Part shown: piece after piece, positions 24,542 to 54,012 of the stretch
How positions within the stretch are numbered: position 1 is the first letter of the stretch
Layout of the letters: every line of letters starts with the position of its first letter
Source of the DNA: Clostridiales bacterium
GTDB lineage: Bacteria; Bacillota; Clostridia; Saccharofermentanales; Saccharofermentanaceae
Direction of reading: 5' to 3'
DNA length: 64,000 nt
Assembly (NCBI GenBank): GCA_017529925.1
Contig: JAFXMZ010000028.1
Coordinates: 1 to 64,000 of the forward strand
The notes under the pieces: model-generated
The model's input: the letters and a program-made list of their open reading frames with translations, nothing else
Told to the model about the DNA's origin: nothing
Databases searched by the model: none
Program-made: the position numbers and the translations under genes

Positions 24542-24635
24542 TCGACTACCCCGCAAAATGAATTCGTGTGTATATAATGATTATATTATATATAAAGAGA
24601 TAATTCGCTTAAAGATATTTGCTGTTTTCGAACCG

Positions 24636-36700: not shown

Positions 36701-39700
36701 GACATATTTGCCTGAAGAAGAATTAAAAGTATAGACACTGTCTCCGTAATCATCCCACTTCTTCTGCTTGAGCGAAGTTGCATTCCAGGTAGTATTAGCA
36801 GCGTTGAGATTAGGAAGAGTAATAGTTACCTCAGACGAATAAGAACCGTTCATGATATTTACTATATTCGTAAAATCTGCAGGACTCGTAAGTATATACG
36901 GATCATTATATGTTCCGCATCCGGACATCGTAAGATCTGCATGATTAACTTTGATCTGATACTTTTTCTCAGAATCGACATTGTCTGCAGTGCTTACATC
37001 ATATACATAAGGAAGGAATCCCGAGAAATCCGTAGGATTAGTCCCAACTGGCTGCGCATAGTTCGTATAGACATCACCGGGCTGATCCTTATACCAGAAT
37101 TCAAGATTATAATACTGATTTCTTGTGGTGCTGTCGCTTATCTCAGAACCATATGTAACACCCTGGGATGCAGTTCTCGAATAAGATCCGCCGTTATCTG
37201 TCCAGTCCTCGGAAAGATTAAAGTTATAAACACCGGAGCCTGAAGAATACATCAGGCTGTTCAGGAAAGTAGCTCTTGTAAACAGCGAGCTCTTAGTACC
37301 GTATACACTGTCGAGACCATAGGCATCGTTATCATTCGCTATCCTGCCGTCGAGTCTGATATTACTGAATGAAACATTAATATTAGTCGCATTCTGTGAA
37401 CCGGCATTACCGATAAGGCTGCTTCCGATCTTCTCATTGTCCTGATATACATTTGTATTCTTTATGTTCTTAACATTGATCGTCGTAAATCCGCCGATCT
37501 TATTGATAAGGAGCGGTGCATACTCGGTAGAACTTATACCGCTGACTTTGATCCCCGCGAGATTTAGATATCCGCTGACATTGAAAGTTGACATCTCGGC
37601 TGCAGAATCACCATAGATCGATCCGAAAATCAGCGCACCGGATTCCTTACTGCCTGTCCTTCCTGCAAGACCGACATTTCCCATAAGGTTCACGGTACCG
37701 ACAATATTACATGTTCCGAAGACGTTCCTCAGGAGTCCGCAATGCATCAGATGATGCTGTGTCATTGAATCCAAAGTATTGTCATAAAGAGACGTCCTCT
37801 TGTATCCGTAAGTCTCTGAATTACTCTTGACTTGTTCACTGGCTTCGAACTCAGAATTATAGAACTTGAATGTACCATTGATATTGATCGTTCCGCTGTA
37901 ATCAACAGGATACCAGCTGTAGCCTGTCATATCATAATTACCGGAAGGAATGCTCGTAGTAGAACCGTTGATCCAACCGGTCGTAAAATACGTCTTTATA
38001 CTGCTGTGAGCATAAAGATGCAATGCCCATCTCATAAGAAGTTCGGGATCACTGCTGCCATCCCTGATAACATCGAGATCATAATAATAACGTGTATTGG
38101 GATTAGGTACATTACCCCTGTTAGTCTGGGCGATATAGGAATTACTGCTGTTTGTCCCGTCAGTAACAAAGCCCGTATTAACAGAAACGACACCCTGACC
38201 GTTAGAAAGGACCTTTCCGTCAAATGCGCTGTATGCAACAAGCTCATCGAAAACACACCCTGATGCGAGACCGGACAGTTTATCGGCCGTGCTGATATTT
38301 GCATCGATATTGTATGCCTTCTTACCGTTGGAATCGGCAAGTATCTCAAGATAAACGGCAGAGTTAGAAGCGACACCTCTGTTGATGATCATACCGAAAG
38401 ATCTGGCGTTAGCAGAAGTGACAGTAATATCGTTTATGCTGATACCTTCTTTGTGGACATAGATCGTAGTATCGTTAGCTGCGTCATATTGTTCTATCTC
38501 ATATGGCTCCACTTTCCAGTATCCTGTTCCGTTATATACAAGACCTGCAAGGTCACCCTTATTGGCTGAAGTACCGGTTAAAGTAACAGAAGAACCGTTG
38601 TTGACCTGGACATTATGGAATACGGGATTAACATTAAGCCATGAATAACCCAGCATACCGCCTATGGAAACATCAGAACCCGAACTTCCGGCCGAAGATA
38701 TCGTAAGTCCGTTGATATTGATGCTCTCAAGGTCCATTTCCCTCTGGCTCGTACCCGAATACTCGGCAATAGCAGCAATAAGTCCGCCGATCTTATTTGT
38801 GGTATTGGCAGAAGTCTTTGTTATATTCCCCGATACATCGATATTATGGAATACCCATGAAGCAGACTGAGAATTGTGAGCTATCCATCCGATGATACCG
38901 CCATAGCAGCTGTCAGCATTTGTATTGCTGACAGAAGTATTGCAGGCAGCACTTGAATTCTCGATATCTATCTCACTGACGGAAGATGCGATCTGACCGA
39001 TCAGTCCGCCGTAATAGATATGCTTGTCACCTTCAAGCACATAATTAGTCGAATGTGCTCCGTCAGTTACTGTATCAGCAAGATGAACACCATCAAGAAT
39101 GACATAGCCTGTAGAACGTCCTGCCAGAGAACCGACATATGCATTATCCCTTAATGCCTTAGTATAGACATTGCCGGTAAGAGTTACATTGGAAGCCGTC
39201 TGTGATGAACTGTCAGTAATACCGAAGAGACCAAGATATATATGACGGTATATCTTTCCGAATCCCTCTGCAGAATGCGAGGTGATCGCAGTATCACCGA
39301 TATAACCATAAGGTTCACCGATCGAAAGATTAATTGTATGGCCATTACCGTTGAAATAACCGGTAAATGAACACTTATAGGAATCTTCAATACTGATAGT
39401 CTCAAAATTGTCCCTTGTGAATGTACTGATACCAACACCGGACAGATCTATATCAGAGGTCAGCCCGATAGTTGCATCAAGAAGATCGGAGCTGCCGTCA
39501 AATCTCAGTACTCCATCATACTGACTGTCAAACATCTGCATATAAAGGGCGATATCTACAAAATCAGCAACAGAGCCTACAGCGTAGAATTCTTCCCATG
39601 TCTCAGGATCAGTAGACGTCGAGATATCAGGAACAGTAACACAATGACCGATCTCATCAACAGTAAAGACGACATTACCGCCGATCGTCTCTTCTGTTTC

Positions 39701-41587: not shown

Positions 41588-41607
41588 CCTTATTCTCCTT
41601 GTGATCA

Positions 41608-42681
41608 CTACTGCGAGATATTGACTCTTATCCATGCCCCTGTCTGCTCATCTGAAGCTTTGTTATAAGCAAACAGCGTATCCCATGTCGCAGGATCAGT
41701 CGTATCATCCAGTATGCCCTTCTTGTAAAGCTGGATCGAATATCTGTTCCTGTTTTCCTTTGCCGTATCACCCGTATCTGCATTGATCACCAATGTATGC
41801 CATCCGCTCAGGTCAACGCCCTGATCGATGACTTCATTGGCAGCAAATGAATATACCTTCTTGAGGTTATCGTAGAAGTACTTGTTGAGTTCTACTTTCG
41901 ATGTATCCCACTTGATCGTTATCGTAGCAGCACCGGAACCGCTGACTATGAGGTTATAGCCGTCAAAATCAACAGGAGAATTGGTATCTGTCTTCTCACT
42001 GATACTAGCCTTCCATCCGTTCGAGGCAGATGAAGAAGTAGTCTTGAGACCTATAACACCGGATATCGTCCTGAGATCCTGATAGACATTTCCATTATTA
42101 TCAAGAGTAGGTACGGCTCTTACACGGATACAGTAATCATCATCATTCTCAACACTCCATCCGGAAGAGAATCTTATGATGAAATGATCCGTATCCGATA
42201 CACTTCCATATGCAAGCTTCTGATTCGTAAAGCTTCCGGAAGTATTGCTGTCATTAAGGACTACAGACGTATTATCAGGTGCTATTACCGTGATGGACCT
42301 GTTACCCATGGATACTGCAAGATCATTACCTGACTTATCTGTCAGTTTGAACTCGAGGTCATAATTGATATCGAGAGGATAAAGACTGTTAAGATCATCA
42401 AGGCTGTAGTTCCAAAGATAAAGGTCGCAGTCATAGGTACCGCTTGCCTTGGTCTTTGTATATTTAGGCCTGTAGACATTATCTCCGGATTCGACAAGGA
42501 TATTTGAAGAGAACCTCATTCCGGGACCTGCCTTTGAGACAACGACTCTATGCATGCTGCTTACCGTAGCGGTATATTCAGCAAATACGATAAATGACAT
42601 CGAAAACAGGGTTACGGAAACAGCAACGATCCAGATAAGGAGCCACTGCTTCTTTACGAATCTATATATCCTGTTTGCCAT
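41608..42681 (-). CDS. Membrane-anchored extracellular beta-rich protein (minor fibre component candidate)
   Basis: 357 aa. A basic N-terminus and one hydrophobic segment (about residues 13-34) are followed by an Asn/Asp/Ser/Thr-rich extracellular region that looks like beta-sandwich domains. No known family is recognised from sequence. It has no AWF motif, unlike its two upstream neighbours. Its stop is 20 bases before the giant protein start, so the two are likely cotranslated and may interact, for example by anchoring the giant protein. Confidence 0.7.
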   Translation of the reverse strand: MANRIYRFVKKQWLLIWIVAVSVTLFSMSFIVFAEYTATVSSMHRVVVSKAGPGMRFSSNILVESGDNVYRPKYTKTKASGTYDCDLYLWNYSLDDLNSLYPLDINYDLEFKLTDKSGNDLAVSMGNRSITVIAPDNTSVVLNDSNTSGSFTNQKLAYGSVSDTDHFIIRFSSGWSVENDDDYCIRVRAVPTLDNNGNVYQDLRTISGVIGLKTTSSSASNGWKASISEKTDTNSPVDFDGYNLIVSGSGAATITIKWDTSKVELNKYFYDNLKKVYSFAANEVIDQGVDLSGWHTLVINADTGDTAKENRNRYSIQLYKKGILDDTTDPATWDTLFAYNKASDEQTGAWIRVNISQ

Positions 42682-42706
42682 ATACAGTGCCTCCTTTCCT
42701 CAAGAA

Positions 42707-43507
42707 TCAGCTCTTTCTCTCAACAGAGAGATAGATAAGATCGGTCTCTTTATTGTTAAGGTGTCCTACTTCCCAGGAAACCTCAAGGATAAAGTAGTTA
42801 CAGAACTTTTTCGTGTTAGGATCGATATTCGAATCGATTGTTGCCTGCCAGTATGAGGGAACGCTGTCAAAATGAACATTGGTATTGCTTCCGTATGTAT
42901 TCTGATAGAAGACCTCTGAAGCATCCCTCTTTGCAACAGTCGGATCACTGTCATTAACGAGATTAAAATATCTGCCGTTCACTTCATTGCCCTTGCTGTA
43001 ATGTACATCGCCGGATGCAACATCATCGAAAACAAGCGTATTCTCGGGCTTATTCTCATCGGGGCCTACATTTTCCTGATCAGAGGCCTTGGGATGAAGT
43101 GATGCTGAAACGTCTGCTCCAGTCCCGTTAGGCAGCTCGGTCGCTTCATAGATCTTGTATGTAAAACCGTTATTGTTCGTATGAGCAAGCTGAAGAGTAT
43201 ACTCGTTCGTGCTCTCACCGGAAACAGTAAAGACATAGAGCTTGCTCAAAACAGGAACCCCGTTAACATCCTCAGTTACATCGATCTCGTCGAGATTAAA
43301 GAATTTACGGTCTTCCCTGTGAGCTGCATTGATGAAGAGAGAATTAGGATACTTGACCTTAAACATCTCTGCCGCTTTCTGCTGACCGTTAAACCATGCA
43401 AATACAGGAATAAGGACAACAAGGCACACCGTAAGGACAGATGCAACTATCAGCTGTATCTTCCTCTTTGTGTAAGCACTGTTCTTCTGTTTAACCTGCC
43501 TTCTCAT
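42707..43507 (-). CDS. TasA/camelysin-like anchored protein with SipW-type signal
   Basis: 266 aa. The N-terminus is very basic, then hydrophobic to residue 36, ending PVFAWF at residues 34-39. This resembles the SipW-dependent signal peptide of TasA/camelysin-type proteins. The remainder is an acidic, probably beta-rich extracellular domain (FTVSGESTNEYTLQLAHTNN segment) with a WEVGH stretch near the end. It is the second gene of the giant-protein operon. Assignment to the family rests on the signal and context, not on a clear domain match. Confidence 0.68.
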   Translation of the reverse strand: MRRQVKQKNSAYTKRKIQLIVASVLTVCLVVLIPVFAWFNGQQKAAEMFKVKYPNSLFINAAHREDRKFFNLDEIDVTEDVNGVPVLSKLYVFTVSGESTNEYTLQLAHTNNNGFTYKIYEATELPNGTGADVSASLHPKASDQENVGPDENKPENTLVFDDVASGDVHYSKGNEVNGRYFNLVNDSDPTVAKRDASEVFYQNTYGSNTNVHFDSVPSYWQATIDSNIDPNTKKFCNYFILEVSWEVGHLNNKETDLIYLSVERKS

Positions 43508-43528
43508 CTGTCTGCTCCCTTATCTTTA

Positions 43529-44734
43529 TCAGACTTCTTCAACCGTAACTTCTATCATGAAGTATGCTATGCCCGTACCGATCATAAAATCCGCATTGTT
43601 GTAACCCGAGCTCAGCAAATTGTAATTGAGCGGGACATCGGCATTATCGATCATATCGTCTATCGTAGATTCGATAAGAGCCTCTATCTCGGAATCGGTC
43701 TTTCCTTCCTTCTGCTCTTCCGTAAGTGATGCAATCTTCTCAAGATCGTGGAATACGGAAGCTTTGTTCTCCTTCAGATACTCGATAACTGCTGCCTTAT
43801 CCGTACCGGATGCTGCATTGCTGTCCTCAACAAGCGGTATATTCCTTCCTCGCAGCCCGGATGTATTATCCTTCAGTGCTATCTGACCGAAAGTATTGGC
43901 CCAGACCCAGTTGATAGAGATCGGATATGCCGTTCCCGAAGTAAGATTATTCTCACTGAAGGACAGGACTCTTGTATCGATCGGATCTGAGTAACTGTAC
44001 TGTGAAGGTACGGAAGACTCATTCTCGAAGAACATGATATGACCCTTGAGGTATTCTTCGGCACTTGTGAGCCTCTCGAGATCACCTTCTGATATCCTGC
44101 ATGTCTCTGTAGAAACATCAGATACTGCCATAAGTACCCTCTCGGTCTCATAAACAGGATTACCGTTCTTATCGACTACAGGCTCTCCATTCTTGACTTC
44201 CTGGATCTTATCGCCGTTCCCGTCGAGAGTATAAAGATCGACATATGCATAACCGACAACATTGAGAGTAAACTCAAGGCTGAGGCTTCCGTCATGCTTA
44301 GGGATAACATAAAGGCTGAGCTTGCCGCTGCTGTCGGGACCGACATCGGCCGGAATGCTCTCATCGATATCCTCAGTTGAAGGATCATCCGCAGTCGGGA
44401 CAAACATAAGCTTCAGATTGTCGGTATTGAGAGACGCATAATACATATCGTTGTGTGCTGATGCATCAGGATAGATCCCTACAACACCGATGGAATACTC
44501 AGGATTGAGGAGCGAGAATACATCATTATTCCTGACAGCAGTACCCTTGGTGGCAATATCGTAATTCCTTGTGCTGACAGTAATGCTCATACCGCTCGTA
44601 TCGGATTCCTTGGACATAACAAACCATGCTATCGTAGCCAGTATGAATACGATAAGCGAGAACAGCAGAAGTATCACAGTCTTATTGAGATACTTTCTGA
44701 CTTTTTTGTCTTCTGTCCTTACTGCCTTTGTCAC
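43529..44734 (-). CDS. TasA/camelysin-like anchored protein with SipW-type signal, first gene of the giant-protein operon
   Basis: 401 aa from a GTG at 44734, with AAGGAG five bases upstream; a further in-frame GTG at 44770 has no ribosome site. The basic N-terminus and hydrophobic segment end with ATIAWF at residues 33-38, then SGMSITVSTRNYDIA, close to the start of the major subunit at 53112. A long extracellular region follows, with STRNYDIATKG and, near the C-terminus, NYNLLSSGYNNADFMIGTG. A strong promoter lies upstream. Its role is probably a fibre subunit or adaptor. Confidence 0.75.
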   Translation of the reverse strand: MTKAVRTEDKKVRKYLNKTVILLLFSLIVFILATIAWFVMSKESDTSGMSITVSTRNYDIATKGTAVRNNDVFSLLNPEYSIGVVGIYPDASAHNDMYYASLNTDNLKLMFVPTADDPSTEDIDESIPADVGPDSSGKLSLYVIPKHDGSLSLEFTLNVVGYAYVDLYTLDGNGDKIQEVKNGEPVVDKNGNPVYETERVLMAVSDVSTETCRISEGDLERLTSAEEYLKGHIMFFENESSVPSQYSYSDPIDTRVLSFSENNLTSGTAYPISINWVWANTFGQIALKDNTSGLRGRNIPLVEDSNAASGTDKAAVIEYLKENKASVFHDLEKIASLTEEQKEGKTDSEIEALIESTIDDMIDNADVPLNYNLLSSGYNNADFMIGTGIAYFMIEVTVEEV

Positions 44735-44790
44735 AATTGCTCCTTTTTGATCTTGGGCATAATACCCCACGATCAGTTTTTGTCACATTT

Positions 44791-44819
44791 ATTATAATAT
44801 TGAAAAAGTCAAATAGCAA
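44791..44819 (-). promoter_or_regulatory. Sigma-A-type promoter of the giant-protein operon
   Basis: On the - strand TTGCTA (44819-44814), 17-bp spacer, TATAAT (44796-44791), 57 bases before the GTG start at 44734. A second TTGACT lies inside the spacer region but gives a wrong distance. Confidence 0.8.
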
Positions 44820-44846
44820 TAAAACAAGCGGTCTTTCGGCCGCTTG
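44820..44846 (-). terminator. Rho-independent terminator of the head (EAL-SipW-AAA) operon
   Basis: CAAGCGG (44825-44831) and CCGCTTG (44840-44846) form the stem; on the - strand it is followed by TTTTATT. It separates the operon starting near 52.8 kb from the one starting at 44.7 kb, and abuts the next promoter. Confidence 0.85.
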
Positions 44847-44988
44847 AACACCCTTTAAAAGGGGTTTAGATACAGAATTCTGTCATAATTTCGCCTTTAT
44901 TTACATCGTGTTAACACTTTGTTATTTTTGACACAGGAAAAAGACCATCACACAACAGATAAAGGCGATTATCCGTCAGTATAAGATA
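44847..44988. other. Palindrome-rich 3' untranslated stretch
   Basis: No ORF. It has a 10-bp inverted repeat TCGCCTTTAT (44891-44900) / ATAAAGGCGA (44959-44968), a perfect palindrome ACAGAATTCTGT (44872-44883), another GTGTTAACAC (44908-44917) and the near-palindrome CCCTTTAAAAGGG (44851-44863). They could be operators for the promoter at 44791 or a structured 3' UTR or small RNA. Confidence 0.6.
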
Positions 44989-45213
44989 TCAGAGTGAATC
45001 AAATCTCTTCTGCAGTTCGATCATATGATTTCTGCAGGCAGTGATCTCTCCCGTATATTTATTGAACCATTCAACGTCAGCGTCATTTGGTTCCTCCTGC
45101 AAAAGGATAGCCTGAACAAGCGCCGACTGTGATCTGGAGCGTTTGCGCTCGATCTCGACGATAGTCTTTCTGCAGGTGTTGATCTCTCTTTTCAATCTGC
45201 TCTTCTCACTCAT
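44989..45213 (-). CDS. Small coiled-coil protein
   Basis: 74 aa, highly charged, predicted all-helical: RLKREINTCRKTIVEIERKR then a second helix ending ELQKRFDSL. Two Cys are present. No signal or membrane segment, so cytosolic. The start is an ATG 22 bases after the one-TM gene with AAGG nearby. No family recognised; as the last gene of the AAA+/SipW operon it may be a small adaptor. It has no competing ORF and codon use looks like its neighbours. Confidence 0.65.
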   Translation of the reverse strand: MSEKSRLKREINTCRKTIVEIERKRSRSQSALVQAILLQEEPNDADVEWFNKYTGEITACRNHMIELQKRFDSL

Positions 45214-45235
45214 ATTCTTACCTAACCTTTCTGTG

Positions 45236-45757
45236 TCAATATCCTTTCAGGTCAATAGAATCGACCAGTTCTCTGGCTTCGTCATAACCTTTATCAAGGT
45301 CAACATCAATATCCTTCAGGGCCTGTAAAGCCGCTTCGAGATTCTCATCCTCCTGCATCTGGTCCGGATACTTAAGGAATACGGTATACAGCTCATTTAT
45401 GGCCTTCTGCTCTTCCTCAAAATCATCGATAAGGAATGCAAAGGAACTGACAGAGTTCATATCAGCAACGATCCTCCTGTACCTGAACTCGAAGTCTCCC
45501 TCAGCATTGTTATATGACTCTATATCGTCTATGACCTTTTCGATACAGGCTTTATACTCCTTTCTGAAGGTCTGTTGAACAGTCTTTTTCTCATCAAGAT
45601 AGAGTGCAATGAAGACAGCCAGCGCTATGAGCGTGATTATCGCGATAAACACTGCCCTCAGCATCTTTTTCTTCATGATATACTCCTGCCCGTTATCGCG
45701 CGCAGTATATCTGAACATCTCCTGAATCCGGTCTTTATTGTCCTTCTTCTTTGCCAT
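45236..45757 (-). CDS. Single-pass membrane protein with helical C-terminal domain
   Basis: 173 aa: a charged cytosolic N-terminus of about 32 residues, one transmembrane helix (33-54), then an acidic helical domain (EYKACIEKVIDDIESYNNAE and so on). No family recognised. Its start lies 23 bases inside the upstream SipW gene, implying translational coupling. It may be a scaffold for the peptidase/AAA+ complex; this is inference. Confidence 0.7.
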   Translation of the reverse strand: MAKKKDNKDRIQEMFRYTARDNGQEYIMKKKMLRAVFIAIITLIALAVFIALYLDEKKTVQQTFRKEYKACIEKVIDDIESYNNAEGDFEFRYRRIVADMNSVSSFAFLIDDFEEEQKAINELYTVFLKYPDQMQEDENLEAALQALKDIDVDLDKGYDEARELVDSIDLKGY

Positions 45758-46397
45758 CTTTATCCTCTTCCCGTTTCTTCAGATACTCCTCAACAGCTTT
45801 ACGTTTGATCTTCTCGATCTCATCCTGCTCCTCTTCAAGTTCTTCCTCTTCTATTATCTTCTTCCTCAGTGACGCTATCGTCTTCACCTCAAAGAAGGAT
45901 ATGAACAGCACCGGTATGATAACAAGAACAAACAGAAGCTTCTTCTTATCCGCAAAAGAGCCTATCCACCTGAAGAACCGTGCTTTTCCGGTGTACCGGC
46001 CGACTACTTTCGAGGGGTTTACGGGATAATCATCTGATAATGTGTTAGCATCACCCTTGGTCCTGTACGAACCGTCGTCGTTTATGCCGATTATCCTGTG
46101 TGTTACTACACTTCCCCTGACATCGGGATCATCAGAGTAGAATGCGATGATATCGCCCTCTTTAAGGGCCTGATCTCCGGGATCGGAGACTATTATGAAA
46201 TCCCCTGTATGGATTGTCGGCTCCATACTTCCCGTAACTACTCTCATGACACTCTTTCCGAAGATCTTTATGACCTTTCCCCTGCCCGTATTTATCATGA
46301 CATATGCCGTAAATATCATTACGGCTGCCATCACGATAAACGCGATAACGTCAAGTGCCGTGCTCCTGCTGTCCGCCGTTTTGTTGATCAGCTTCAT
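45735..46397 (-). CDS. SipW-type (ER/archaeal-type) signal peptidase I, copy 1
   Basis: 220 aa. A transmembrane helix (about 15-36) precedes the catalytic VVTGSMEPTIHTGDFIIV with Ser57. The general base is His100 in VVTHRIIG, not Lys, which defines the SipW/ER class. GDANTLSDDYPVNPSKVVGRY is the next conserved block. A second hydrophobic helix (153-169) and a very acidic/basic cytosolic tail follow. In Bacillus, SipW processes TasA and TapA. It begins right after the DUF2357-like gene and overlaps the next gene by 23 bases. Probable role: cleaving the AWF-type signals encoded here. Confidence 0.9.
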   Translation of the reverse strand: MKLINKTADSRSTALDVIAFIVMAAVMIFTAYVMINTGRGKVIKIFGKSVMRVVTGSMEPTIHTGDFIIVSDPGDQALKEGDIIAFYSDDPDVRGSVVTHRIIGINDDGSYRTKGDANTLSDDYPVNPSKVVGRYTGKARFFRWIGSFADKKKLLFVLVIIPVLFISFFEVKTIASLRKKIIEEEELEEEQDEIEKIKRKAVEEYLKKREEDKDGKEEGQ

Positions 46398-48836
46398 TTA
46401 CTTCTCACCGAGTGCCTGCTTAAATTCTCTTTCCTTTTCCTCCTTTGACATTGCTTTAATGCTCCTTCTTATCTGTTCGATAAGACCGACTCTGTACTCC
46501 TTATAGAGAGCCTTCATCTGCTTATCGATAGCAGCCTGCTCCTCAGGGGTGCGCTTAGGCGGCACATACTGAGGCTTCGGCTTGTTTCTGGCTTCCTTCT
46601 TCTTCTTTCTCTTGAACTTGATGTCGGCAATATCCCTTCTGATCTGATACTTCGTATCTGTGGAATACTTCCTGTAGTAGACCTCCATCTTGTTTCTTTC
46701 TTCGTCTTCTCTCTTCCTGATCTCTGCTTCTTCGGCACGCTTTGCAAGGATCCTCTTGTAATCCGGATTGTCGGTATCCTTCGGAATATAACCGAAAAAC
46801 TTGTAAAGAAGCCTCATCATGCCTCTCTCGAACATATTGACCGGATTCTTTGAATATTCTCTTCTTATCTCCTCGAAAGGCTTGCTCTCGTAGTACTTCC
46901 TGTCCGCCTTGAGGCGCTGGGCTCTCTCCTCTTCCTTTCGCTCCTTTTCCCTTCTCTGCTGCTCGATCTTCATCTTGGCGGCTATCTTACGAGGATCATT
47001 ATTCCTCTCATATTCACTCATGACGGCAGCAGCAGCAGCGACTTTCTCTTCAGATACCTTCGCCTCGGGTATCTCATCACTCTCAAGGATAGCAAGACCA
47101 TCTTCAACTTCATCGATGGCATCTTCGCTGTGTTCAAACTTATCAGCAATAGCAGCTGCCTTCTCCTGATCGACCTTGACAGCCTCAGCCTCCCTGGCGG
47201 CACGGACTTCCTCCATAGCCGCAACGGCATCATCGATCTCATCGCCGGTAACATTGCTGTAAGCCCTTTGTATATCGGTGATATCCTTCTGCTTGTCATA
47301 TTTGACAGTATCGATGCCTTCTGCTCCGCCGAGTTCTGCACGCATCTGGAGTTTCTGTTCTGCGATACGGGCTTTCTCGGCAGCGATTCGTTCTTCTTCC
47401 TCTTTCTTGCGCCTTGCTTCTTCCTCAAGACGTTTCTGCTCTTCGATCCTGGCAAGTCTTTCAGCCTCAAGACGCGCGCGCTCGCGCTCTTCGGCTTCCA
47501 TCTCGGCCTTTCTCTTCTCGAGCATCTCGGCAATACGCTGTTTCTCCGCTTCCTTTTCGATACGGATCCTCTCGCGCTCTTCTCTCTTGGCTTCCTCTAT
47601 GCGGCGCTTTTCCTCGAGCCTTGCCTCTCTCTCGGCACGGAGCCTTTCCTTCTCTTCCTTTTCTTCCTGTTTAGCCCTGATCTCGGCATCGATACCTGCA
47701 TAATAGTTGCGTTCGATCTCGATCGCCTTATCGATCTGCTCAAAGATATCATCTGAATTCTCAGGTACAGTCTTTACAAACAGCGCCTCACCGTCATCTG
47801 CGATATAACCGACTGCCTGATCCGCATGAAGATCGTAGTTACCGGTAAGAAGCTCGCGGCCGTATTTCTTAACGATCTTAGGCGCGATCGGCTTGAGCTT
47901 CTTTTTGCCGATCTCGAGCATGGAATCCTCATCAGCGGTATAAGAACGGAAAAGGAGCAGATTACAAGCAATGATCTTATAAAGATCATCAACATAATCA
48001 GTCTCAGGCTTTAATGCCGTATCTTCAACATTGATCTCATAGCCGGCACTCTCATAACTGAGGATATACTGCCAGAGTGCAAGACATGCTTTCAGATCGA
48101 CATTCTTCAGGATAGCATTAGTCCTCATGATAGGAGGTCTTACAAAGTTATTTCCGAGAGTCTGACAGAGTTCGGAGCCTTTGTATCCCTCTATCATCTT
48201 CTTGAGCTTCTCAACTCTCTGCCAGATCGTAAAACCCTGATCATTAGTAGATTCCAGGCTCTTACTTGTATCGATCGAAAGCTTGAGGGATATAGTATTA
48301 CCGGATCCGTCTTCGATATTCGTATCAAAATCCATCGAAAAGACTTCTTCATCCTTGGATATCTGTGAAAGCTTCTCATATCTTGTGACGATAAAGATAT
48401 AAAGCCTGTCTATAAGTGTGTTTACAAACCTGTTCTCATACGTCTCAAGGCTCTCTTCCTTATGGACATTCAATATCTTGGAAGGCGTTATCTTACCTGT
48501 TCTGTGGTCGATACTCTGGATCAGGTCTGTATGCTGTGCAAGATGCTTTACCGACTCGACAGTGATCTTTTTCGAGAGCGCTATAGGGACAAGTTCCTCA
48601 ACATCAACGATGGTCCTGCTCGGATTTCTTACGATATTATCAACATGGATGATCGCATTCTCAATGGCTTCGACCCACGAGACATCGATGACTTTCTCCA
48701 TGAGCTTCCGGTTAAGTGAAAGATTGCTTTTACTGCTGCCGACAAGCTGATCCATGACATCAAAGAGATCATTATCTCCCAGGATGTCCATGGAGTCCCG
48801 AAATTCACTGTACCACTTGTCGTAGCGCTCGTTCAA
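46398..48836 (-). CDS. DUF2357-like protein with long coiled coil, partner of the McrB-like ATPase
   Basis: 812 aa, TTG start with a weak AAGG site, so the exact start is uncertain. Residues 1-380 are a folded region; KITPSKILNVHKEESLETYENRFVNTL at 115-141 resembles the DUF2357 core found in proteins next to McrB-type ATPases (McrC-like). Residues about 385-510 are an extreme Glu/Arg/Lys coiled coil (EEKERLRAEREARLEEKRRIEEAK type), followed by more helical charged repeats to the C-terminus. I see no PD-(D/E)XK nuclease motif, which DUF2357/McrC proteins usually carry. No signal or membrane segment. It lies 33 bases after the ATPase gene, suggesting they work together. Confidence 0.72.
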   Translation of the reverse strand: MNERYDKWYSEFRDSMDILGDNDLFDVMDQLVGSSKSNLSLNRKLMEKVIDVSWVEAIENAIIHVDNIVRNPSRTIVDVEELVPIALSKKITVESVKHLAQHTDLIQSIDHRTGKITPSKILNVHKEESLETYENRFVNTLIDRLYIFIVTRYEKLSQISKDEEVFSMDFDTNIEDGSGNTISLKLSIDTSKSLESTNDQGFTIWQRVEKLKKMIEGYKGSELCQTLGNNFVRPPIMRTNAILKNVDLKACLALWQYILSYESAGYEINVEDTALKPETDYVDDLYKIIACNLLLFRSYTADEDSMLEIGKKKLKPIAPKIVKKYGRELLTGNYDLHADQAVGYIADDGEALFVKTVPENSDDIFEQIDKAIEIERNYYAGIDAEIRAKQEEKEEKERLRAEREARLEEKRRIEEAKREERERIRIEKEAEKQRIAEMLEKRKAEMEAEERERARLEAERLARIEEQKRLEEEARRKKEEEERIAAEKARIAEQKLQMRAELGGAEGIDTVKYDKQKDITDIQRAYSNVTGDEIDDAVAAMEEVRAAREAEAVKVDQEKAAAIADKFEHSEDAIDEVEDGLAILESDEIPEAKVSEEKVAAAAAVMSEYERNNDPRKIAAKMKIEQQRREKERKEEERAQRLKADRKYYESKPFEEIRREYSKNPVNMFERGMMRLLYKFFGYIPKDTDNPDYKRILAKRAEEAEIRKREDEERNKMEVYYRKYSTDTKYQIRRDIADIKFKRKKKKEARNKPKPQYVPPKRTPEEQAAIDKQMKALYKEYRVGLIEQIRRSIKAMSKEEKEREFKQALGEK

Positions 48837-48869
48837 AACAAATACCTTAAGTAAACGTAAATACCGTTA

Positions 48870-50450
48870 TCAGAACAACTTCTGGAGTCTTTCGAGATAA
48901 GCGATAGATTCGTTCATCTTTCCTCTTCCGAATGATTTATTGATATATGTGCAGAGTTCCTTGAGCTCATCGCGGAGCATTGCAAGGTTCAAAGATTCAA
49001 ACTTTCTGAAGATCTTTGTAGCAAGCACATAATCTATACCGTCGAGTTCCTCACCGCCGCAGGCAACATATACCGGTACAAAAAGTCCCATCTGCTTGAT
49101 GATACGGTTACCGAAAGCAACTCTGAGCTTCTCAATAACCCACAGATCGAGCTGATGAATCTTCTTAAGGTTCTCCTGCGATATAGGATATTTCTCATAC
49201 GCCTCATTGAACAGCTCGTTCAGATGAGTATATGATACCGAGATAGGAGGCGTATCAGGCGCCTCGAAAGCGACACCCTTCGCATCAAGATTGATCGGCT
49301 GGGCACGGTCATAGACCTTATCGGAGATGGCATATGTGGAATCGTCGTTATTAGCAGTTCCGACATACCATATATTCTGCGGGATCCTGAGTTTGCCCTT
49401 CTCGAGCTTCTCAGGGTCTGTACTCCAGACACTTGGCACAAGGTCGAGCGCCCACTCATCAGAGTTAGGCATCTCGAGTATGGAGAGCATCTCGGCGAAA
49501 TAATACTCGATACGGGCGATATTCATCTCGTCGAGGAGGATGATATTGATATCATCGTTATAGTTGGATGCGTAGATCCTTCTTAATACTTCCGTTTCAT
49601 TGAAGTTCTTCGTAAATTCATTGAAGAATCCGAAGAGCTCGGTACGGTCTCTCCAGGAAGGCTGAACGGATGCTATCGTCGTATCGACTCCAAGGAACTT
49701 ACCGAATGAATATGGGAGCGACGTTTTACCTGTACCGGATATACCCTGAAGGATGATAAGTTTCGTAGAAGCCATACCTGCTACAAACAGCCTTACTATC
49801 TTCGGCTCATAGAACAGATGCATCTTCGAGCAGGCAAAATTCCTGAACTTGTCACAGAAAGTGACAAGGTCGATCTCATTATCATATTCAGGCGGTGTAT
49901 ATGTCTTATAGAAATTATCGACCTCAAACAGTTTCGAGAACCTGTGGTCTGTAGTAACAAATACACCGTCCTCGGTCGGGGCCTGACTGTCTCCTTCGAG
50001 TCCGTCACCGGTACCGGCAAAAGAAGAAATACCTTCTCCTGCGGCTGCAAAACCTCTGTTGCCGCCGGGAAGACCGATCTGGGCGACCTTCATGGCCATG
50101 ATCTCGTCCTTCTCCCTGGCCATCTTCATAACTCTCTGCTGTAATACGGATATCTCTTCAAGAAGATCCTCATTACTAACTATGGAATGACGGAATCTGA
50201 TATACTTTCTTACCGCAAATATGATCAGGAGTGCGATCAGAACATAGATGGCGGCAACAACAAGTATGGAAAGGATCGCAAGGACCCATCCCAAAGCCCC
50301 GAACTCAACAGAATATGTCTTGAATATATCGACATAATTCTTGATATTAAAGATCTGTACAATGCCTTTCCCTATACCCGTGAATATAAGGCTGAAGCCT
50401 TTCAGCATCTCGGATATAAAAGCAAAAAACCATCTAAAAAACGCACTCAT
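48870..50450 (-). CDS. Membrane-anchored McrB-like AAA+ ATPase
   Basis: 526 aa. A hydrophobic N-terminal stretch and transmembrane helix (about 52-81) anchor it; a short coiled coil (95-120) and a Gly-rich linker follow. The AAA+ core has Walker A GISGTGKTS (236-244), QPSWRDRTELFGFF (263-276), Walker B IILLDEMN (303-310) and the sensor-like GTANNDDSTYAISDKVYDRA (364-383), the arrangement of McrB/AAA_5 proteins. McrB proteins are usually soluble restriction GTPases or ATPases; membrane anchoring and neighbours suggest a different job, such as powering assembly or secretion. It is between the two SipW genes. Confidence 0.85.
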   Translation of the reverse strand: MSAFFRWFFAFISEMLKGFSLIFTGIGKGIVQIFNIKNYVDIFKTYSVEFGALGWVLAILSILVVAAIYVLIALLIIFAVRKYIRFRHSIVSNEDLLEEISVLQQRVMKMAREKDEIMAMKVAQIGLPGGNRGFAAAGEGISSFAGTGDGLEGDSQAPTEDGVFVTTDHRFSKLFEVDNFYKTYTPPEYDNEIDLVTFCDKFRNFACSKMHLFYEPKIVRLFVAGMASTKLIILQGISGTGKTSLPYSFGKFLGVDTTIASVQPSWRDRTELFGFFNEFTKNFNETEVLRRIYASNYNDDINIILLDEMNIARIEYYFAEMLSILEMPNSDEWALDLVPSVWSTDPEKLEKGKLRIPQNIWYVGTANNDDSTYAISDKVYDRAQPINLDAKGVAFEAPDTPPISVSYTHLNELFNEAYEKYPISQENLKKIHQLDLWVIEKLRVAFGNRIIKQMGLFVPVYVACGGEELDGIDYVLATKIFRKFESLNLAMLRDELKELCTYINKSFGRGKMNESIAYLERLQKLF

Positions 50451-50475
50451 AATCCTGATTCCTTACTTTATATTA

Positions 50476-51201
50476 TTATTCTTCATTATTTTCATTTATA
50501 ACTTCCACTGTTTCCTTAATCTCATCTGAGGCTTCTTTAACCGCATCAGCGGCATTGTCAGCAGTCTCACCTGCTCCGGCTGAGGCCTTCTCCTTTGCCA
50601 GGAATTCCTCGATAGCCTTCCTCTTTATCTCCTCCTCATCTTCCTTGGAGATCTTAGGCTTCTTGACCTCTATAAGAGTAACGATAAACTTATAGAGCTC
50701 AAAAAGGAAAAAGAGGGCCATCGGAATCAATATACAGATAAAGAAGCCTGTCTTTGTACGGAGGAAGTTCAGGACCTTTCCGAATCCCGGTATCTTTGCT
50801 CCTGTCCAGCGGCCGATGATATCAGATGAATATGTGGGAGACTCATCGGCAACGGGATTATTATCACCCTTCGTAGTAAAGTTCCTGGCGCTGTTATCAA
50901 GGTCCTCTATCGCAACGATACGGTGCGTATTCTTAACGCGGTTGCCGTCGATAACAGTATAGAATGTGATAACATCATCCACCTTAAGGTCATACAGATC
51001 AGTTTCCTTGACAAAAATCATGTCACCTTTCTTGAACGTCGGTGCCATTGAATCTGATTCAACAGTCATCGGCATCACGCCGAAAAGACTCGGTATCCCG
51101 TTATTTCTCTCGGACGTAAAGACAAGGATCGTAACAAGGAATGCCAGAATCAGCAGTATCCAGGCTAATGCATTAACGATGATCTTCAGTGCTTTTTTCA
51201 T
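50476..51201 (-). CDS. SipW-type (ER/archaeal-type) signal peptidase I, copy 2
   Basis: 241 aa. N-terminal transmembrane helix (8-28), catalytic VESDSMAPTFKKGDMIFV with Ser51, general base His93 in KNTHRIVAI, then KGDNNPVADESPTYSSDIIGRW; a second helix near 152-172 and a long charged tail ending in Glu/Asn. The Ser-His dyad marks the SipW class. It differs from copy 1 in the spacer between Ser and His blocks and in the tail, so the two may have different substrates. It lies between the anchored TasA-like gene and the AAA+ gene. Confidence 0.9.
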   Translation of the reverse strand: MKKALKIIVNALAWILLILAFLVTILVFTSERNNGIPSLFGVMPMTVESDSMAPTFKKGDMIFVKETDLYDLKVDDVITFYTVIDGNRVKNTHRIVAIEDLDNSARNFTTKGDNNPVADESPTYSSDIIGRWTGAKIPGFGKVLNFLRTKTGFFICILIPMALFFLFELYKFIVTLIEVKKPKISKEDEEEIKRKAIEEFLAKEKASAGAGETADNAADAVKEASDEIKETVEVINENNEE

Positions 51202-51222
51202 AATCTTTCCCTTTTCTGTTCC

Positions 51223-51945
51223 TTATGTGGTTTCAGTTATCTTAAAATCCATCCCGAACTTGATTGTTCCGCCGACGATATCATCAACACAATCAGGATC
51301 GTTCCCCTCGAGCCATATTACTATGGTGTATTTATCTTTTGAGCGCGGCTCAAAATCGGTGACGACTTCCTTACGGACGAGAGATGAGGACAGAAACTCC
51401 TCGTCACAATCACTCTCTATCCCCTTGCCGTTGGACTTTGTCTTGCCGTAGACAGTCTTCTCGCCATTCTTGAAAACAGCGACCCTGACAGCTTCATCTA
51501 CGCCCTTGGATACATTATCTACATAAAGCTCGCTCTGATATGAGAGCGTGTCATCACCTGAATTGATAAGATAGAAAGTATAAGCGATATAATTGGTGCC
51601 GTTATGGCTTCCGTTCACACTGTCGATATTCTCCGGAAGGTCCTCACCGCTTATATTGGTCATATCATAGACTACTTCTGCATTGAGTACAGATATAGCT
51701 CTTCCGTATTCAGGAGTCTCTGAGAGTGACAGACCCTGATTGACCATATCATATTTATCGATCCTGACAGTAAAGCTGCCGAACTTATCATAGAAATAAG
51801 AAACAGCATAAGCGATCGCAACAAGAGCAATAAGGATGATAATGAGAAGTGCCATCATCCTCATCACAAATGCATGCTTCTTGACTTCTTTTGCAGTCCT
51901 ACGAAGCCTGACTACGTCTTTAATCTTTCCGCCGTTATCTGCCAA
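51223..51945 (-). CDS. Membrane-anchored TasA/camelysin-like protein
   Basis: 240 aa if started at the TTG at 51945, eight bases from AGGAAGG; another TTG at 51951 is too close to that site. A cytosolic basic stretch, one transmembrane helix (residues about 28-53) and an extracellular beta domain follow. The segments YIAYTFYLINSGDD and IWLEGNDPDCVDDIVGG resemble the C-terminal block of the major subunit (IYFEGEDANCKSSN), indicating a shared fold. Without AWF it probably keeps its anchor, suggesting an assembly base. It is the second gene of the head operon. Confidence 0.75.
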   Translation of the reverse strand: MADNGGKIKDVVRLRRTAKEVKKHAFVMRMMALLIIILIALVAIAYAVSYFYDKFGSFTVRIDKYDMVNQGLSLSETPEYGRAISVLNAEVVYDMTNISGEDLPENIDSVNGSHNGTNYIAYTFYLINSGDDTLSYQSELYVDNVSKGVDEAVRVAVFKNGEKTVYGKTKSNGKGIESDCDEEFLSSSLVRKEVVTDFEPRSKDKYTIVIWLEGNDPDCVDDIVGGTIKFGMDFKITETT

Positions 51946-51973
51946 GATCAAAACCTTCCTTTAAATAATAATA

Positions 51974-52768
51974 TCATTCATTTCTCTTTCGTACATATCT
52001 TTCGAGCGTATACTTGCCCGCCAGATTACCTGCTACAAATCTGCAGTCCGCTTCGAAAAGCGCTTCAGCCTGGTTCGCTGTCGATATACCGTCAGCTATC
52101 GGTTCAGCTCCGAGGCCCTCAACGAAATGGACTACAGACTTAACTGCATCATTCGATCTCTCGTTCTTCCCGATATATGAGGTAACCTCCTGACTGAGCA
52201 TCACATAATCAACAGGATAATCTGAAAGCTTCATGAGAGGCGAGTTATTGCCGCCGAATCCGCTGATCATGAAATGAAAGCCTCTGTTCCTCATATTCTC
52301 GATGATGCGGGAATGCTTAACATTACCCTCGACCAGGATCTTAAGTGGAAGCTCAAAGCAGATCTTATTCAGGTCAACCTGCCAGTCTTCCATATAAGCT
52401 ACCAGTTTCTGTTCGATACTCCTCTCAAGAAGCACCCTCGGAGGCATATATACGGAAAGCCACTTAAAGAAGAAATCCCTCTCGATAAACTTCTTCACCG
52501 CTTCGAGTGCCTGACGAAGCTCCAGGTCGAAAAGCGATACGCACTGATTCGAAAGCTCGGCAACATCCCTGTAGTTCTCCGGCATGAGTATGCCGATGCC
52601 CGGAGTATTGAGGCGGGTCTTCGACTGGAAGAAATTAACACTGCCGCTCTCGATCTCCCTTATACCGCGGAAGAACATCTCAACAGCACGAAGTCCGCCA
52701 ACGTTGTCATTGGGCATTTCATTAGCGATCGTGATATCGATATCGTTTACAGTGTTATCTGCAGCCAC
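51974..52768 (-). CDS. Degenerate EAL-domain protein
   Basis: 264 aa, GTG start with AGGAGG upstream. The fold is recognisable (SGFGGNNSPLMKLSDYPVDYVMLSQE corresponds to DDFGTGYSSL...LKIDRSF of EAL domains; GAEPIADGIST to VVAEGVET). Catalytic residues are lost: the EAL Glu region reads FFQSK, DDFG reads SGFG, the Lys of KID reads MLS, and EGVE reads DGIS. It is unlikely to hydrolyse c-di-GMP; it may bind it or a protein. As first gene of the operon it may be the control subunit of the fibre system. No signal or membrane segment. Confidence 0.8.
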   Translation of the reverse strand: MAADNTVNDIDITIANEMPNDNVGGLRAVEMFFRGIREIESGSVNFFQSKTRLNTPGIGILMPENYRDVAELSNQCVSLFDLELRQALEAVKKFIERDFFFKWLSVYMPPRVLLERSIEQKLVAYMEDWQVDLNKICFELPLKILVEGNVKHSRIIENMRNRGFHFMISGFGGNNSPLMKLSDYPVDYVMLSQEVTSYIGKNERSNDAVKSVVHFVEGLGAEPIADGISTANQAEALFEADCRFVAGNLAGKYTLERYVRKRNE

Positions 52769-52815
52769 TTCAGCCTCCTAATCAAAAAAGATTAAAAAGA
52801 TTAAACAACAAATTA

Positions 52816-52844
52816 ATTATATAATAAGTCTTTTTCTTTAACAA
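52816..52844 (-). promoter_or_regulatory. Promoter of the head operon
   Basis: On the - strand TTGTTA (52844-52839), 17-bp spacer, TATAAT (52821-52816); 48 bases before the EAL gene start. Confidence 0.8.
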
Positions 52845-52933
52845 ATGACACGAAAACTCCCGAAAACGTACTGTTTATGCGGTTTTATGGCATTTTGTTA
52901 TCTTCTGTTTTGTAATTATTAAAATATAATTTA

Positions 52934-52961
52934 AAAAACGAGCGACTGTTTCGCCGTTTTT
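52934..52961. terminator. Terminator-like hairpin between divergent promoters
   Basis: AAAAACG and GCG pair with CGC and CGTTTTT with one bulged A, giving T runs on both strands. It lies between the head-operon promoter and the major-subunit promoter, where no gene end is close; it could insulate the two units or be a regulatory element. Confidence 0.6.
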
Positions 52962-53000
52962 GCCTGATTGTGAAAGAAATGTGAATTCATCCGAAATCTT

Positions 53001-53029
53001 TTGACACAATCGTCCGCATATGATAAATT
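53001..53029 (+). promoter_or_regulatory. Promoter of the major fibre subunit gene
   Basis: TTGACA at 53001-53006 is a perfect -35; TAAATT at 53024-53029 follows a 17-bp spacer. The 5' UTR of about 75 bases contains a CTGTTC/GAACAG hairpin (about 53052-53082) and then AAGGAG before the ATG. No c-di-GMP riboswitch was recognised. Confidence 0.7.
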
Positions 53030-53111
53030 TGGGCTGTAAGTAAAGAAACATGCTGTTCTGCGAATAAGGCTTGGAGGAACAGTAACGATAAAAAGAAAAG
53101 GAGAAACGACT

Positions 53112-53966
53112 ATGAAAACGACAAAATTCTCAGCAAGGAGAAAGATCTTGGCATCCGTTGCCATGCTCGCAGTCTCCGCAGTCATGCTGTCCAGTGCGAC
53201 ATATGCATGGTTTACCATTAACAAGACCGTTTCGGTCACAGGAATGAAGCTCAAGGCTACAGCTGAGCAGGGTCTCGTAATTTCCGGCGACAATAAGCAA
53301 ACCTGGCTTACAGCATGGGACGTTAACATGTCAGCAGGAGTTGCTCTTGCTCCTGCAAGTACGGACGGTGCAGCTACACCCGCCTGGGCAACAGCAGGAA
53401 GTAGAGCATTTGATAGTGCAGATAAAGATAATCCTATAACAGGCTATACGGATCTTAGTCTGACATATGCCGCTCCCGCTTCGATCACAGGAAATGCATT
53501 CGGTAACGGTGAAGGTGTTGGAAGTGCTAATGATCATGATTACGTACTGAAGAAGATCTTCTATATCAAGTCTGCAAGTAACGAAGCTTGGGCAAATCAG
53601 AATCTTGTAATTGATTCCGTTACGGCTGAACTCCCTTCAACGGCAGCAACTGCAAATCTTGACAAGTCCCTCAGAGTACTCGTAGTTGTAGGATCCGACT
53701 CATTCATCTATGCACCTGTTGCAGGATATGATACATCTTGTAACTTCAGGGGAACCACGGCTCTTACACTTATTGCTGCTGATACTGACAGCACATGTAC
53801 GAGCGTAACTTCGATCCCTGCTAACTCGACGACATCTCCTATCGAGGTCGATATGTATATCTACTTCGAGGGTGAGGATGCAAACTGCAAGTCCTCTAAC
53901 CTTACAGCTGCAAGCGTTGATGAGCTTACAGTAAGCGCAAGCTTCAAGACAGCAGCTACTGCTTAA
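53112..53966 (+). CDS. Probable major TasA/camelysin-like fibre subunit
   Basis: 284 aa. The SipW-type signal is textbook: basic start, hydrophobic core, SSATYAWF (AWF at 32-34) then NKTVSVTGMKLKA. The mature part is Ala/Ser/Thr-rich and low in charge, with one Cys pair region (TSCNF, TDSTC) and IYFEGEDANC near the C-terminus. TasA and camelysin-type proteins assemble into extracellular fibres by donor-strand exchange. It stands alone with a strong promoter and terminator, divergent from its processing genes, as expected for a highly expressed major subunit. TasA itself versus another CalY-like family cannot be decided. Confidence 0.85.
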   Translation: MKTTKFSARRKILASVAMLAVSAVMLSSATYAWFTINKTVSVTGMKLKATAEQGLVISGDNKQTWLTAWDVNMSAGVALAPASTDGAATPAWATAGSRAFDSADKDNPITGYTDLSLTYAAPASITGNAFGNGEGVGSANDHDYVLKKIFYIKSASNEAWANQNLVIDSVTAELPSTAATANLDKSLRVLVVVGSDSFIYAPVAGYDTSCNFRGTTALTLIAADTDSTCTSVTSIPANSTTSPIEVDMYIYFEGEDANCKSSNLTAASVDELTVSASFKTAATA

Positions 53967-53982
53967 GTTACTGATCAATACG

Positions 53983-54012
53983 AAAGGAGCCTCATTTGAG
54001 GCTCCTTTTTTT
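53983..54012. terminator. Strong bidirectional terminator
   Basis: AAAGGAGCCTC (53983-53993) pairs perfectly with GAGGCTCCTTT (53998-54008), with a run of T on the + side and A/T tails on both. It ends the fibre gene and the facing small-protein gene. Confidence 0.92.

What the first reader, a model, noticed from the sequence alone, without database searches (positions are those of the whole stretch)
41608..53966. Fibre locus combining SipW, TasA-like proteins, an McrB-like ATPase and a DUF2357-like partner
Known SipW-TasA clusters contain a signal peptidase, fibre subunit and anchor. Here the same compact operon adds a membrane-anchored McrB-like AAA+ protein, a DUF2357-like coiled-coil protein without a visible nuclease, a degenerate EAL protein, a one-TM protein and a small coiled coil. 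The spacing (gaps of 0-33 bp and overlaps) indicates cotranscription. An ATPase pair derived from a restriction family may here act in fibre assembly, export gating or cell-surface defence. I know of no described system with this set.
Basis: partly seen in the sequence, partly recalled or inferred. Interest (0 to 1): 0.85.

Follow-up and report, generated by a model that had tools for sequence, protein, structure and literature searches.

The report
McrB-like motor for surface fibres
A gut bacterium carries a conserved gene machine that joins an energy-using protein from an anti-virus family to enzymes that release surface-fibre subunits, suggesting that a former restriction motor now helps build fibres on the cell surface.

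Summary
The locus has two SipW-type signal peptidases, not one. A 218-bp gap with a terminator and promoter splits the row into a machine operon (EAL, TasA-like T242, SipA, AAA+, DUF2357, SipB, one-TM, coiled coil) and a cargo operon. The linkage is not accidental. In 80 related loci every core gene is present wherever the contig reaches, and all 57 complete loci keep one order. In 30 loci DUF2357 and SipB are one fused protein. In 148 Ruminococcaceae genomes the AAA+ gene occurs in 8, always with SipW; SipW occurs in 43. Both cluster SipWs carry conserved cytoplasmic tails (SipA motif 80/81) that 21 stand-alone SipWs lack. Machine genes are conserved and inherited together; fibre and cargo genes vary fast. 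The kernel already has a name: 'CoCoPALM' (eLife 2024, one paragraph, no mechanism). Best reading: a membrane-anchored NTPase ring with a nuclease-less McrC-like partner recruits and gates two dedicated SipW peptidases to assemble TasA-like fibres. Function is inferred, not shown. Defence is unsupported: no nuclease, methyltransferase or defence neighbours were found.

The parts
51974..52768 (-). EAL-fold pseudo-enzyme (264 aa), first gene of the machine operon
   Evidence: Pfam EAL 103 bits; catalytic motif residues replaced in the aligned relatives; distant loci carry an HD-GYP-like + EAL protein here
51223..51951 (-). T242: membrane-anchored TasA-like subunit with conserved cytoplasmic tail LRRTAKEVK; proposed fibre base
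   Evidence: alignment A3; AlphaFold model pLDDT 81, best solved match TasA fibre 8aur, Z 6.7; profile match to the calY-like subunit, 95.9%
50476..51201 (-). SipA: SipW-type signal peptidase with conserved C-terminal tail motif EEEIKRKAIEE(Y/F)LA
   Evidence: tail motif in 80 of 81 relatives, 0 of 21 stand-alone SipWs
48870..50450 (-). McrB-type AAA+ NTPase with N-terminal transmembrane helices and coiled coil
   Evidence: motifs, hydropathy, PADLOC PDC-M26A 128.8 bits, alignment A1
46398..48836 (-). DUF2357 (McrC N-terminal type) protein with long charged coiled coil and no nuclease; fused to SipB in 30 of 80 related loci
   Evidence: Pfam 40.5 bits, in 16 of 17 aligned relatives; fusion
45735..46397 (-). 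SipB: second SipW-type signal peptidase, catalytic Ser and His present, conserved tail helix
45236..45757 (-). tm173: one-TM, mostly cytoplasmic helical protein
   Evidence: present in 55 of 55 assessable loci
44989..45213 (-). cc74: small coiled-coil protein, the most conserved member (median 80% identity)
   Evidence: 54 of 54 assessable loci; in Ruminococcaceae strong hits only in genomes with the AAA+ gene
44825..44846 (-). terminator-like hairpin after cc74
   Evidence: consensus scan, not proof
44791..44819 (-). promoter-like site for the cargo block
   Evidence: consensus scan, not proof
43529..44770 (-). T413: TasA/CalY-like subunit with SipW-type signal
   Evidence: iterative profile joins it with T242 and calY284; hit by the subunit profile in the own genome
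42707..43507 (-). T266: secreted subunit, ...VFAWF signal
   Evidence: 12 of the fetched loci, always between T413 and T357
41608..42681 (-). T357: secreted subunit, ...FAEY signal
   Evidence: 12 of the fetched loci
30737..41635 (-). giant 3632-aa secreted protein, probable fibre tip or adhesin, overlaps T357 by 28 bp
   Evidence: relatives next to T357 in other loci
53112..53966 (+). calY284: TasA/CalY-like subunit with SipW-type signal ATYAWF, divergently transcribed; proposed shaft subunit
   Evidence: alignment A6; fast-evolving
52816..53029 (.). divergent promoter region (minus-strand site 52844-52816, plus-strand site 53001-53029)
53982..54009 (+). terminator-like 12-bp stem after calY284

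Best explanation
This is a dedicated, NTP-driven machine for making SipW-processed TasA-like surface fibres. The McrB-type AAA+ protein forms a ring under the membrane, held by its N-terminal helices. The DUF2357 protein, a McrC-like activator that has lost the nuclease, engages the ring and couples it to SipB, to which it is covalently joined in many Ruminococcus. The ring complex also docks SipA through the conserved cytoplasmic tail motif and the base subunit T242 through its conserved cytoplasmic tail. Cycles of NTP hydrolysis control when and where the two peptidases release subunits, so that base (T242), shaft (calY284, T413) and accessory or tip proteins (T266, T357, giant) are assembled in order. 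The EAL pseudo-enzyme is a scaffold or signal input. Shown here: gene content, order, fusion, conserved tails, co-occurrence, and the fast cargo versus slow machine split. Inferred: ring formation, docking, gating, fibre formation.
For: Every core gene is present in all assessable related loci and 57 of 57 complete loci keep the same order. DUF2357-SipB is one ORF in 30 loci with catalytic Ser/His kept, including isolates such as R. albus and R. flavefaciens strains. SipA tail motif 80/81 and SipB tail helix 64/66; stand-alone SipWs 0/21 and 1/21. AAA+ implies SipW: 8 of 8 against 43 of 148 genomes overall. In the window's genus the only SipWs above cut-off (4 of 59 genomes) belong to this cluster: AAA+ found in three, and the fourth has a contig fragment with DUF2357, SipB and tm173. 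Seven of ten other genomes tested have exactly two SipWs, placed around the AAA+ gene. In the own genome the two SipWs and all three subunit-profile hits lie only here. Core genes co-vary with the AAA+ gene (Mantel r 0.65-0.88), the fibre subunit does not (0.29, permutation maximum 0.28). Identity gradient core 44-80%, cargo 24-32%. T242's best solved match is the TasA fibre. Two distant versions (AAA+ 43% and 49%) keep SipW, DUF2357, a T242-like and several TasA-like genes. Precedents: SipW-dependent BsaA polymer in C. perfringens (PMC7395162), TasA donor-strand fibres (PMC9674648), an McrB-family protein reused in cell division (PMC10602043).
Against: Known SipW fibres (TasA, BsaA) form without any such NTPase, so a motor is not strictly needed. 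No fibre, NTPase activity or interaction has been shown. The TasA fold match is weak (Z 6.7) and Pfam's TasA/camelysin family does not match. The DUF2357 model is poor and found no McrC match. Tail conservation could serve something other than docking on the ring.
Confidence: 0.62

Rival explanations
1. Membrane quality-control or extraction machine: the AAA+ ring unfolds or removes stalled SipW substrates or SipW itself, like a chaperone, rather than powering ordered assembly.
For: The AAA+ protein is membrane-anchored with conserved NTPase motifs; tails on both peptidases could be recognition signals for extraction.
Against: No protease partner in the conserved set; a covalent DUF2357-SipB fusion suggests a stable working partner, not a substrate to be removed.
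Confidence: 0.17
2. Cell-surface anti-phage defence: the McrB/DUF2357 pair keeps an immune role, gated by the surface fibre.
For: AAA+ domain resembles a candidate defence model; McrBC and CoCoNuT relatives are defence systems (PMC11090510).
Against: No nuclease or methyltransferase in the conserved set; the CoCoNuT paper states that nuclease-less CoCoNuTs always have a separate nuclease, none seen here; neighbours are housekeeping genes; core kept by many species with the same gene order.
Confidence: 0.1
3. Positioning factor: the FtsB-like TM and coiled-coil McrB places SipW and fibres at poles or septum, as PcdA does for division, with NTP used for localisation only.
For: McrB-family PcdA acts in division-site selection (PMC10602043); CoCoPALM GTPases are described as fused to an FtsB-like domain (PMC11090510).
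Against: No conserved division gene in the cluster; the fusion partner is a signal peptidase.
Confidence: 0.08
4. Accidental linkage of unrelated genes in this genome.
For: The system is patchy within the window's family: 5 of 115 genomes matched the AAA+ query, one of them only a different McrB.
Against: 57 of 57 complete loci in the same order across Ruminococcus, Lachnospiraceae and the window's order.
Confidence: 0.01

Closest known systems
[quoted passage not shown] eLife 2024, PMC11090510)
   Same: McrB-type GTPase domain with N-terminal transmembrane and coiled-coil part, McrC-like DUF2357 partner with coiled coil, signal peptidase next door, NxD-type motif
   Different: The paper's main text gives one paragraph, no gene anatomy or mechanism; two SipWs, DUF2357-SipW fusion, SipW tail motif, TasA-like subunits, EAL pseudo-enzyme, cc74 and tm173 are not described there; supplements could not be read
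tapA-sipW-tasA of Bacillus subtilis
   Same: SipW-type peptidase with jelly-roll subunits carrying SipW-type signals; T242 could play the part of TapA as base
   Different: No NTPase, DUF2357, EAL or second SipW there; here the SipWs have a longer conserved tail; no Pfam match to TasA/CalY (PF12389)
sipW-bsaABCRSD of Clostridium perfringens (PMC7395162)
   Same: SipW-dependent extracellular protein polymer in a clostridium
   Different: Operon has two-component regulators and no NTPase or DUF2357
McrBC type IV restriction and CoCoNuT systems
   Same: McrB-type AAA+ and DUF2357 domains
   Different: No specificity domain, no nuclease, no methyltransferase; membrane-anchored; linked to SipW and secreted subunits
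PcdA of Staphylococcus aureus (PMC10602043)
   Same: McrB-family protein moved from restriction to another cell function
   Different: Acts with FtsZ and DivIVA; no signal peptidase link

Membership tests
CoCoPALM | McrB-type AAA+ NTPase domain | tested here: met
   Walker A GISGTGKT, Walker B ILLDEMN, sensor NND in essentially all relatives; PDC-M26A 128.8 bits; profile hits NxD McrBs
CoCoPALM | NxD signature motif, usually followed by D or E | tested here: met
   NNDD invariant in A1, alongside NMDE/NLDE of other NxD McrBs; the string NNDD would also satisfy NxxD
CoCoPALM | N-terminal transmembrane and coiled-coil (FtsB-like) part on the GTPase | tested here: met
   hydropathy peaks at residues 46 and 65, charged heptad-like stretch after residue 90 (sequence); homology to FtsB itself not tested
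CoCoPALM | McrC-like DUF2357 partner with coiled coil | tested here: met
   Pfam DUF2357 in 16 of 17 relatives; long E/R/K-rich segment
CoCoPALM | associated signal peptidase | tested here: met
CoCoPALM | placement in the CoCoPALM clade of the published GTPase tree | not testable with these tools
SipW-TasA fibre system | SipW-type S26 peptidase with Ser/His | tested here: met
SipW-TasA fibre system | subunit in TasA/camelysin family PF12389 | tested here: not met
   no hit in own genome or proteins
SipW-TasA fibre system | TasA-like jelly-roll fold | tested here: inconclusive
   best solved match 8aur TasA fibre, Z 6.7, 126 residues, rmsd 3.2; other filament proteins in the same list, but Z is below 8
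SipW-TasA fibre system | fibres on the cell | not testable with these tools
   needs microscopy
McrBC/CoCoNuT restriction | nuclease (PD-(D/E)xK, HEPN or other) in the system | tested here: not met
   no nuclease family in any locus protein
McrBC/CoCoNuT restriction | DNA- or RNA-binding specificity domain | tested here: not met
   no such Pfam domain on the AAA+ or DUF2357 protein
EAL phosphodiesterase | catalytic EAL, DDFG, K and Q residues | tested here: not met
   replaced in the aligned relatives

The most novel reading that the evidence does not exclude
An McrBC-derived NTPase ring physically coupled to two signal peptidases by a nuclease-less McrC homologue (covalently in many Ruminococcus) powers or gates assembly of TasA-type fibres: the first NTP-driven SipW pathway and a new use for the restriction motor.
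Probability: 0.45. Interest if true: 0.85.

Novelty: new member of a known kind. Interest (0 to 1): 0.66.

Why it matters
CoCoPALM systems have been named but not explained in the papers found. This locus gives them a concrete, testable job: control of SipW processing and fibre assembly. It also gives handles: a natural fusion, tail motifs, and culturable R. albus, R. flavefaciens and Eubacterium ruminantium strains that carry the locus. If right, a restriction motor has been reused to build surface fibres in fibre-digesting gut bacteria, where such surface structures could matter for attachment to plant material (an inference).

Tried and rejected
Accidental linkage was rejected. A phylum-wide profile search of 398 genomes returned only the own genome plus other, weaker NxD McrBs; those checked had no comparable N-terminal membrane anchor, so this clade is patchy and is not every NxD McrB. 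The DUF2357 structure model (pTM 0.48) gave no meaningful fold match, and McrC was not listed. Sequence searches of solved structures with the AAA+, T242 and DUF2357 profiles found nothing significant. Rfam found no riboswitch in the window. NCBIfam has no model matching the subunits. A first regular expression for the SipB catalytic site missed variants with IHR or SHR; reading the sequences showed that Ser and His are kept. The promoter scan as a whole is at the chance level (22 against 25.8), so single sites are only suggestive. Literature searches found CoCoPALM only in the eLife paper and its preprint.

Full report
WHAT IS THERE. The minus strand from 52768 downwards encodes, in order, an EAL-fold protein, a TasA-like protein (T242), a SipW-type signal peptidase (SipA), a membrane-anchored McrB-type AAA+ protein, a DUF2357 protein, a second SipW (SipB), a one-TM protein (tm173) and a 74-residue coiled coil (cc74). 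After a 218-bp gap come three secreted proteins (T413, T266, T357) and a 3632-residue secreted protein that overlaps T357. A further TasA/CalY-like gene (calY284) is divergent on the plus strand. Family searches support EAL, SipW type and DUF2357; the AAA+ protein is recognised by its motifs and by a candidate-defence McrB-like model rather than by Pfam. Terminator- and promoter-like sites suggest three transcription units: calY284; EAL to cc74; T413 to the giant gene (the scan alone is weak evidence).

IS THE SET REAL? A scan of one genome per species for relatives of the AAA+ protein gave 222, of which the best 80 were kept. In these, wherever the contig was long enough, SipA was present in 76/76, T242 73/73, EAL 67/67, DUF2357 70/70, SipB 56/56, tm173 55/55 and cc74 54/54, and all 57 complete loci had the same order. 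These 80 are close relatives (72-85% identity), so the count is not of independent events, but they span Ruminococcus, Lachnospiraceae, Eubacterium ruminantium and the window's own order. Two distant versions (AAA+ 43% and 49% identical) also have SipW, DUF2357, a T242-like protein and several TasA-like proteins; there the EAL gene is replaced by a degenerate HD-GYP-like protein joined to an EAL or EAL-like part.

GENOME-LEVEL TEST. This test does not depend on neighbourhood. In 148 Ruminococcaceae genomes the AAA+ family (over 700 bits) is in 8 and SipW in 43; all 8 have SipW (about 2.3 expected; hypergeometric about 3e-5, ignoring kinship). In 59 genomes of the window's genus only 4 have a SipW above cut-off. 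Three carry the AAA+ gene, and the fourth has a contig fragment with DUF2357, SipB and tm173. Seven of ten further carrier genomes have exactly two SipWs, spaced as in this cluster. In the window's genome both SipWs and all three subunit-profile hits are in this locus. SipW therefore occurs without the AAA+ gene, but not the reverse in these samples.

PHYSICAL COUPLING. In 30 of the 80 loci DUF2357 and SipB are a single open frame of about 970-1050 residues with the catalytic Ser/His intact, including isolate genomes. SipA ends in a cytoplasmic tail with the motif ExIK[KR][KR]A[IV]EEYLA in 80 of 81 relatives. SipB has a related helix in 64 of 66, and the two exceptions are near matches. Of 21 stand-alone SipW frames from genomes of the same family without the AAA+ gene, none has the SipA motif and one matches the looser SipB pattern. 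T242 has a conserved cytoplasmic tail (LRRTAKEVK) before its membrane helix. These features are what docking of peptidases and base subunit onto a cytosolic complex would look like; the binding itself is inferred.

MACHINE VERSUS CARGO. Median identity to the window protein is cc74 80, AAA+ 76, T242 70, SipA 61, DUF2357 54, EAL 53, tm173 49 and SipB 44%, but only 24-32% for calY284, T413, T266, T357 and the giant protein. Distances of the core genes follow those of the AAA+ gene (Mantel r 0.65-0.88), while the calY-like subunit does not (0.29 against a permutation maximum of 0.28). This is the usual split between a conserved secretion or assembly machine and fast-changing exposed parts.

FOLDS. 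T242 modelled well (pLDDT 81). Its best solved match is the TasA fibre (8aur, Z 6.7, 126 residues, rmsd 3.2), with donor-strand filament proteins (FimA, archaeal bundling pilus and thread, cannulae) in the same list. Z under 8 is not proof of kinship. T242 and calY284 are related by profile comparison (95.9%). The DUF2357 model was poor and uninformative.

HOW IT PROBABLY WORKS. In McrBC, the DUF2357 domain of McrC stimulates the McrB ring (summarised in PMC11090510). Here the nuclease is gone and the DUF2357 protein leads to, or is fused with, a signal peptidase. The simplest reading is that NTP hydrolysis by the membrane-anchored ring controls the two SipW peptidases and the handover of TasA-like subunits, with T242 as base, calY284/T413 as shaft, and T266, T357 and the giant protein as accessory or tip parts. 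SipW is required for release of BsaA in C. perfringens (PMC7395162), and TasA assembles by donor-strand exchange (PMC9674648). Neither work describes an NTPase, so the motor would be an addition. The EAL protein has lost the catalytic residues and is taken as a scaffold or sensor; no ligand is known.

WHAT IS KNOWN. [quoted passage not shown] No later paper was found in the library. All features testable here are met, so the locus is filed as a member of that kind; its position in their tree could not be checked. What this work adds is the full gene set, two SipWs, the fusion, the tail motifs, the TasA-like cargo and the genome-level co-occurrence. As a SipW-TasA fibre system it is an unusual one: the Pfam TasA family test is not met and fibres are untested. 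As a restriction system it fails (no nuclease or specificity domain found).

LIMITS. All function is inferred. The related loci were chosen by similarity to the AAA+ protein. Many are metagenome assemblies, though several isolates agree. Expression, processing and fibres have not been observed.

Noticed in passing
L135:471-1898 and L134:16166-17632: In distant versions of the locus the EAL gene is replaced by a longer protein with an HD-GYP-like domain (HD pair lost, GYP kept) joined to an EAL or EAL-like part, hinting at an ancestral link with cyclic-di-nucleotide signalling.
   Followed up: partly
L160:7247-9015 and L161 region: Weak relatives of cc74 (39-54% identity) occur in two Ruminococcaceae genomes that have neither the AAA+ gene nor a SipW hit; in L160 two copies flank a glycosyltransferase-like gene.
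   Followed up: partly
window 29804-30709: A 301-aa protein right after the giant gene looks like a beta-glucanase by eye but matches no Pfam family; it could be transcribed with the cargo block.
   Followed up: no
window 23174-24556: Protein with four DUF4214 stretches and a CAP domain, an unusual pairing.
   Followed up: no
window 24636-25436: The rRNA adenine dimethylase gene hits a PADLOC defence model (mad2, 77.8 bits) through its methyltransferase fold; a likely false positive.
   Followed up: no
L134:5243-6010: The distant locus also has a second SipW after DUF2357, with a helical tail, so two SipWs may be an old feature.
   Followed up: partly
L019, L029, L049, L057, L070, L072 (calY-like gene after cc74): The calY-like gene lies downstream of cc74 in these Lachnospiraceae and Eubacterium loci, upstream of EAL in same or opposite orientation in others, and the T413-T266-T357 block is downstream or inverted upstream: cargo modules move around a fixed core.
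   Followed up: partly
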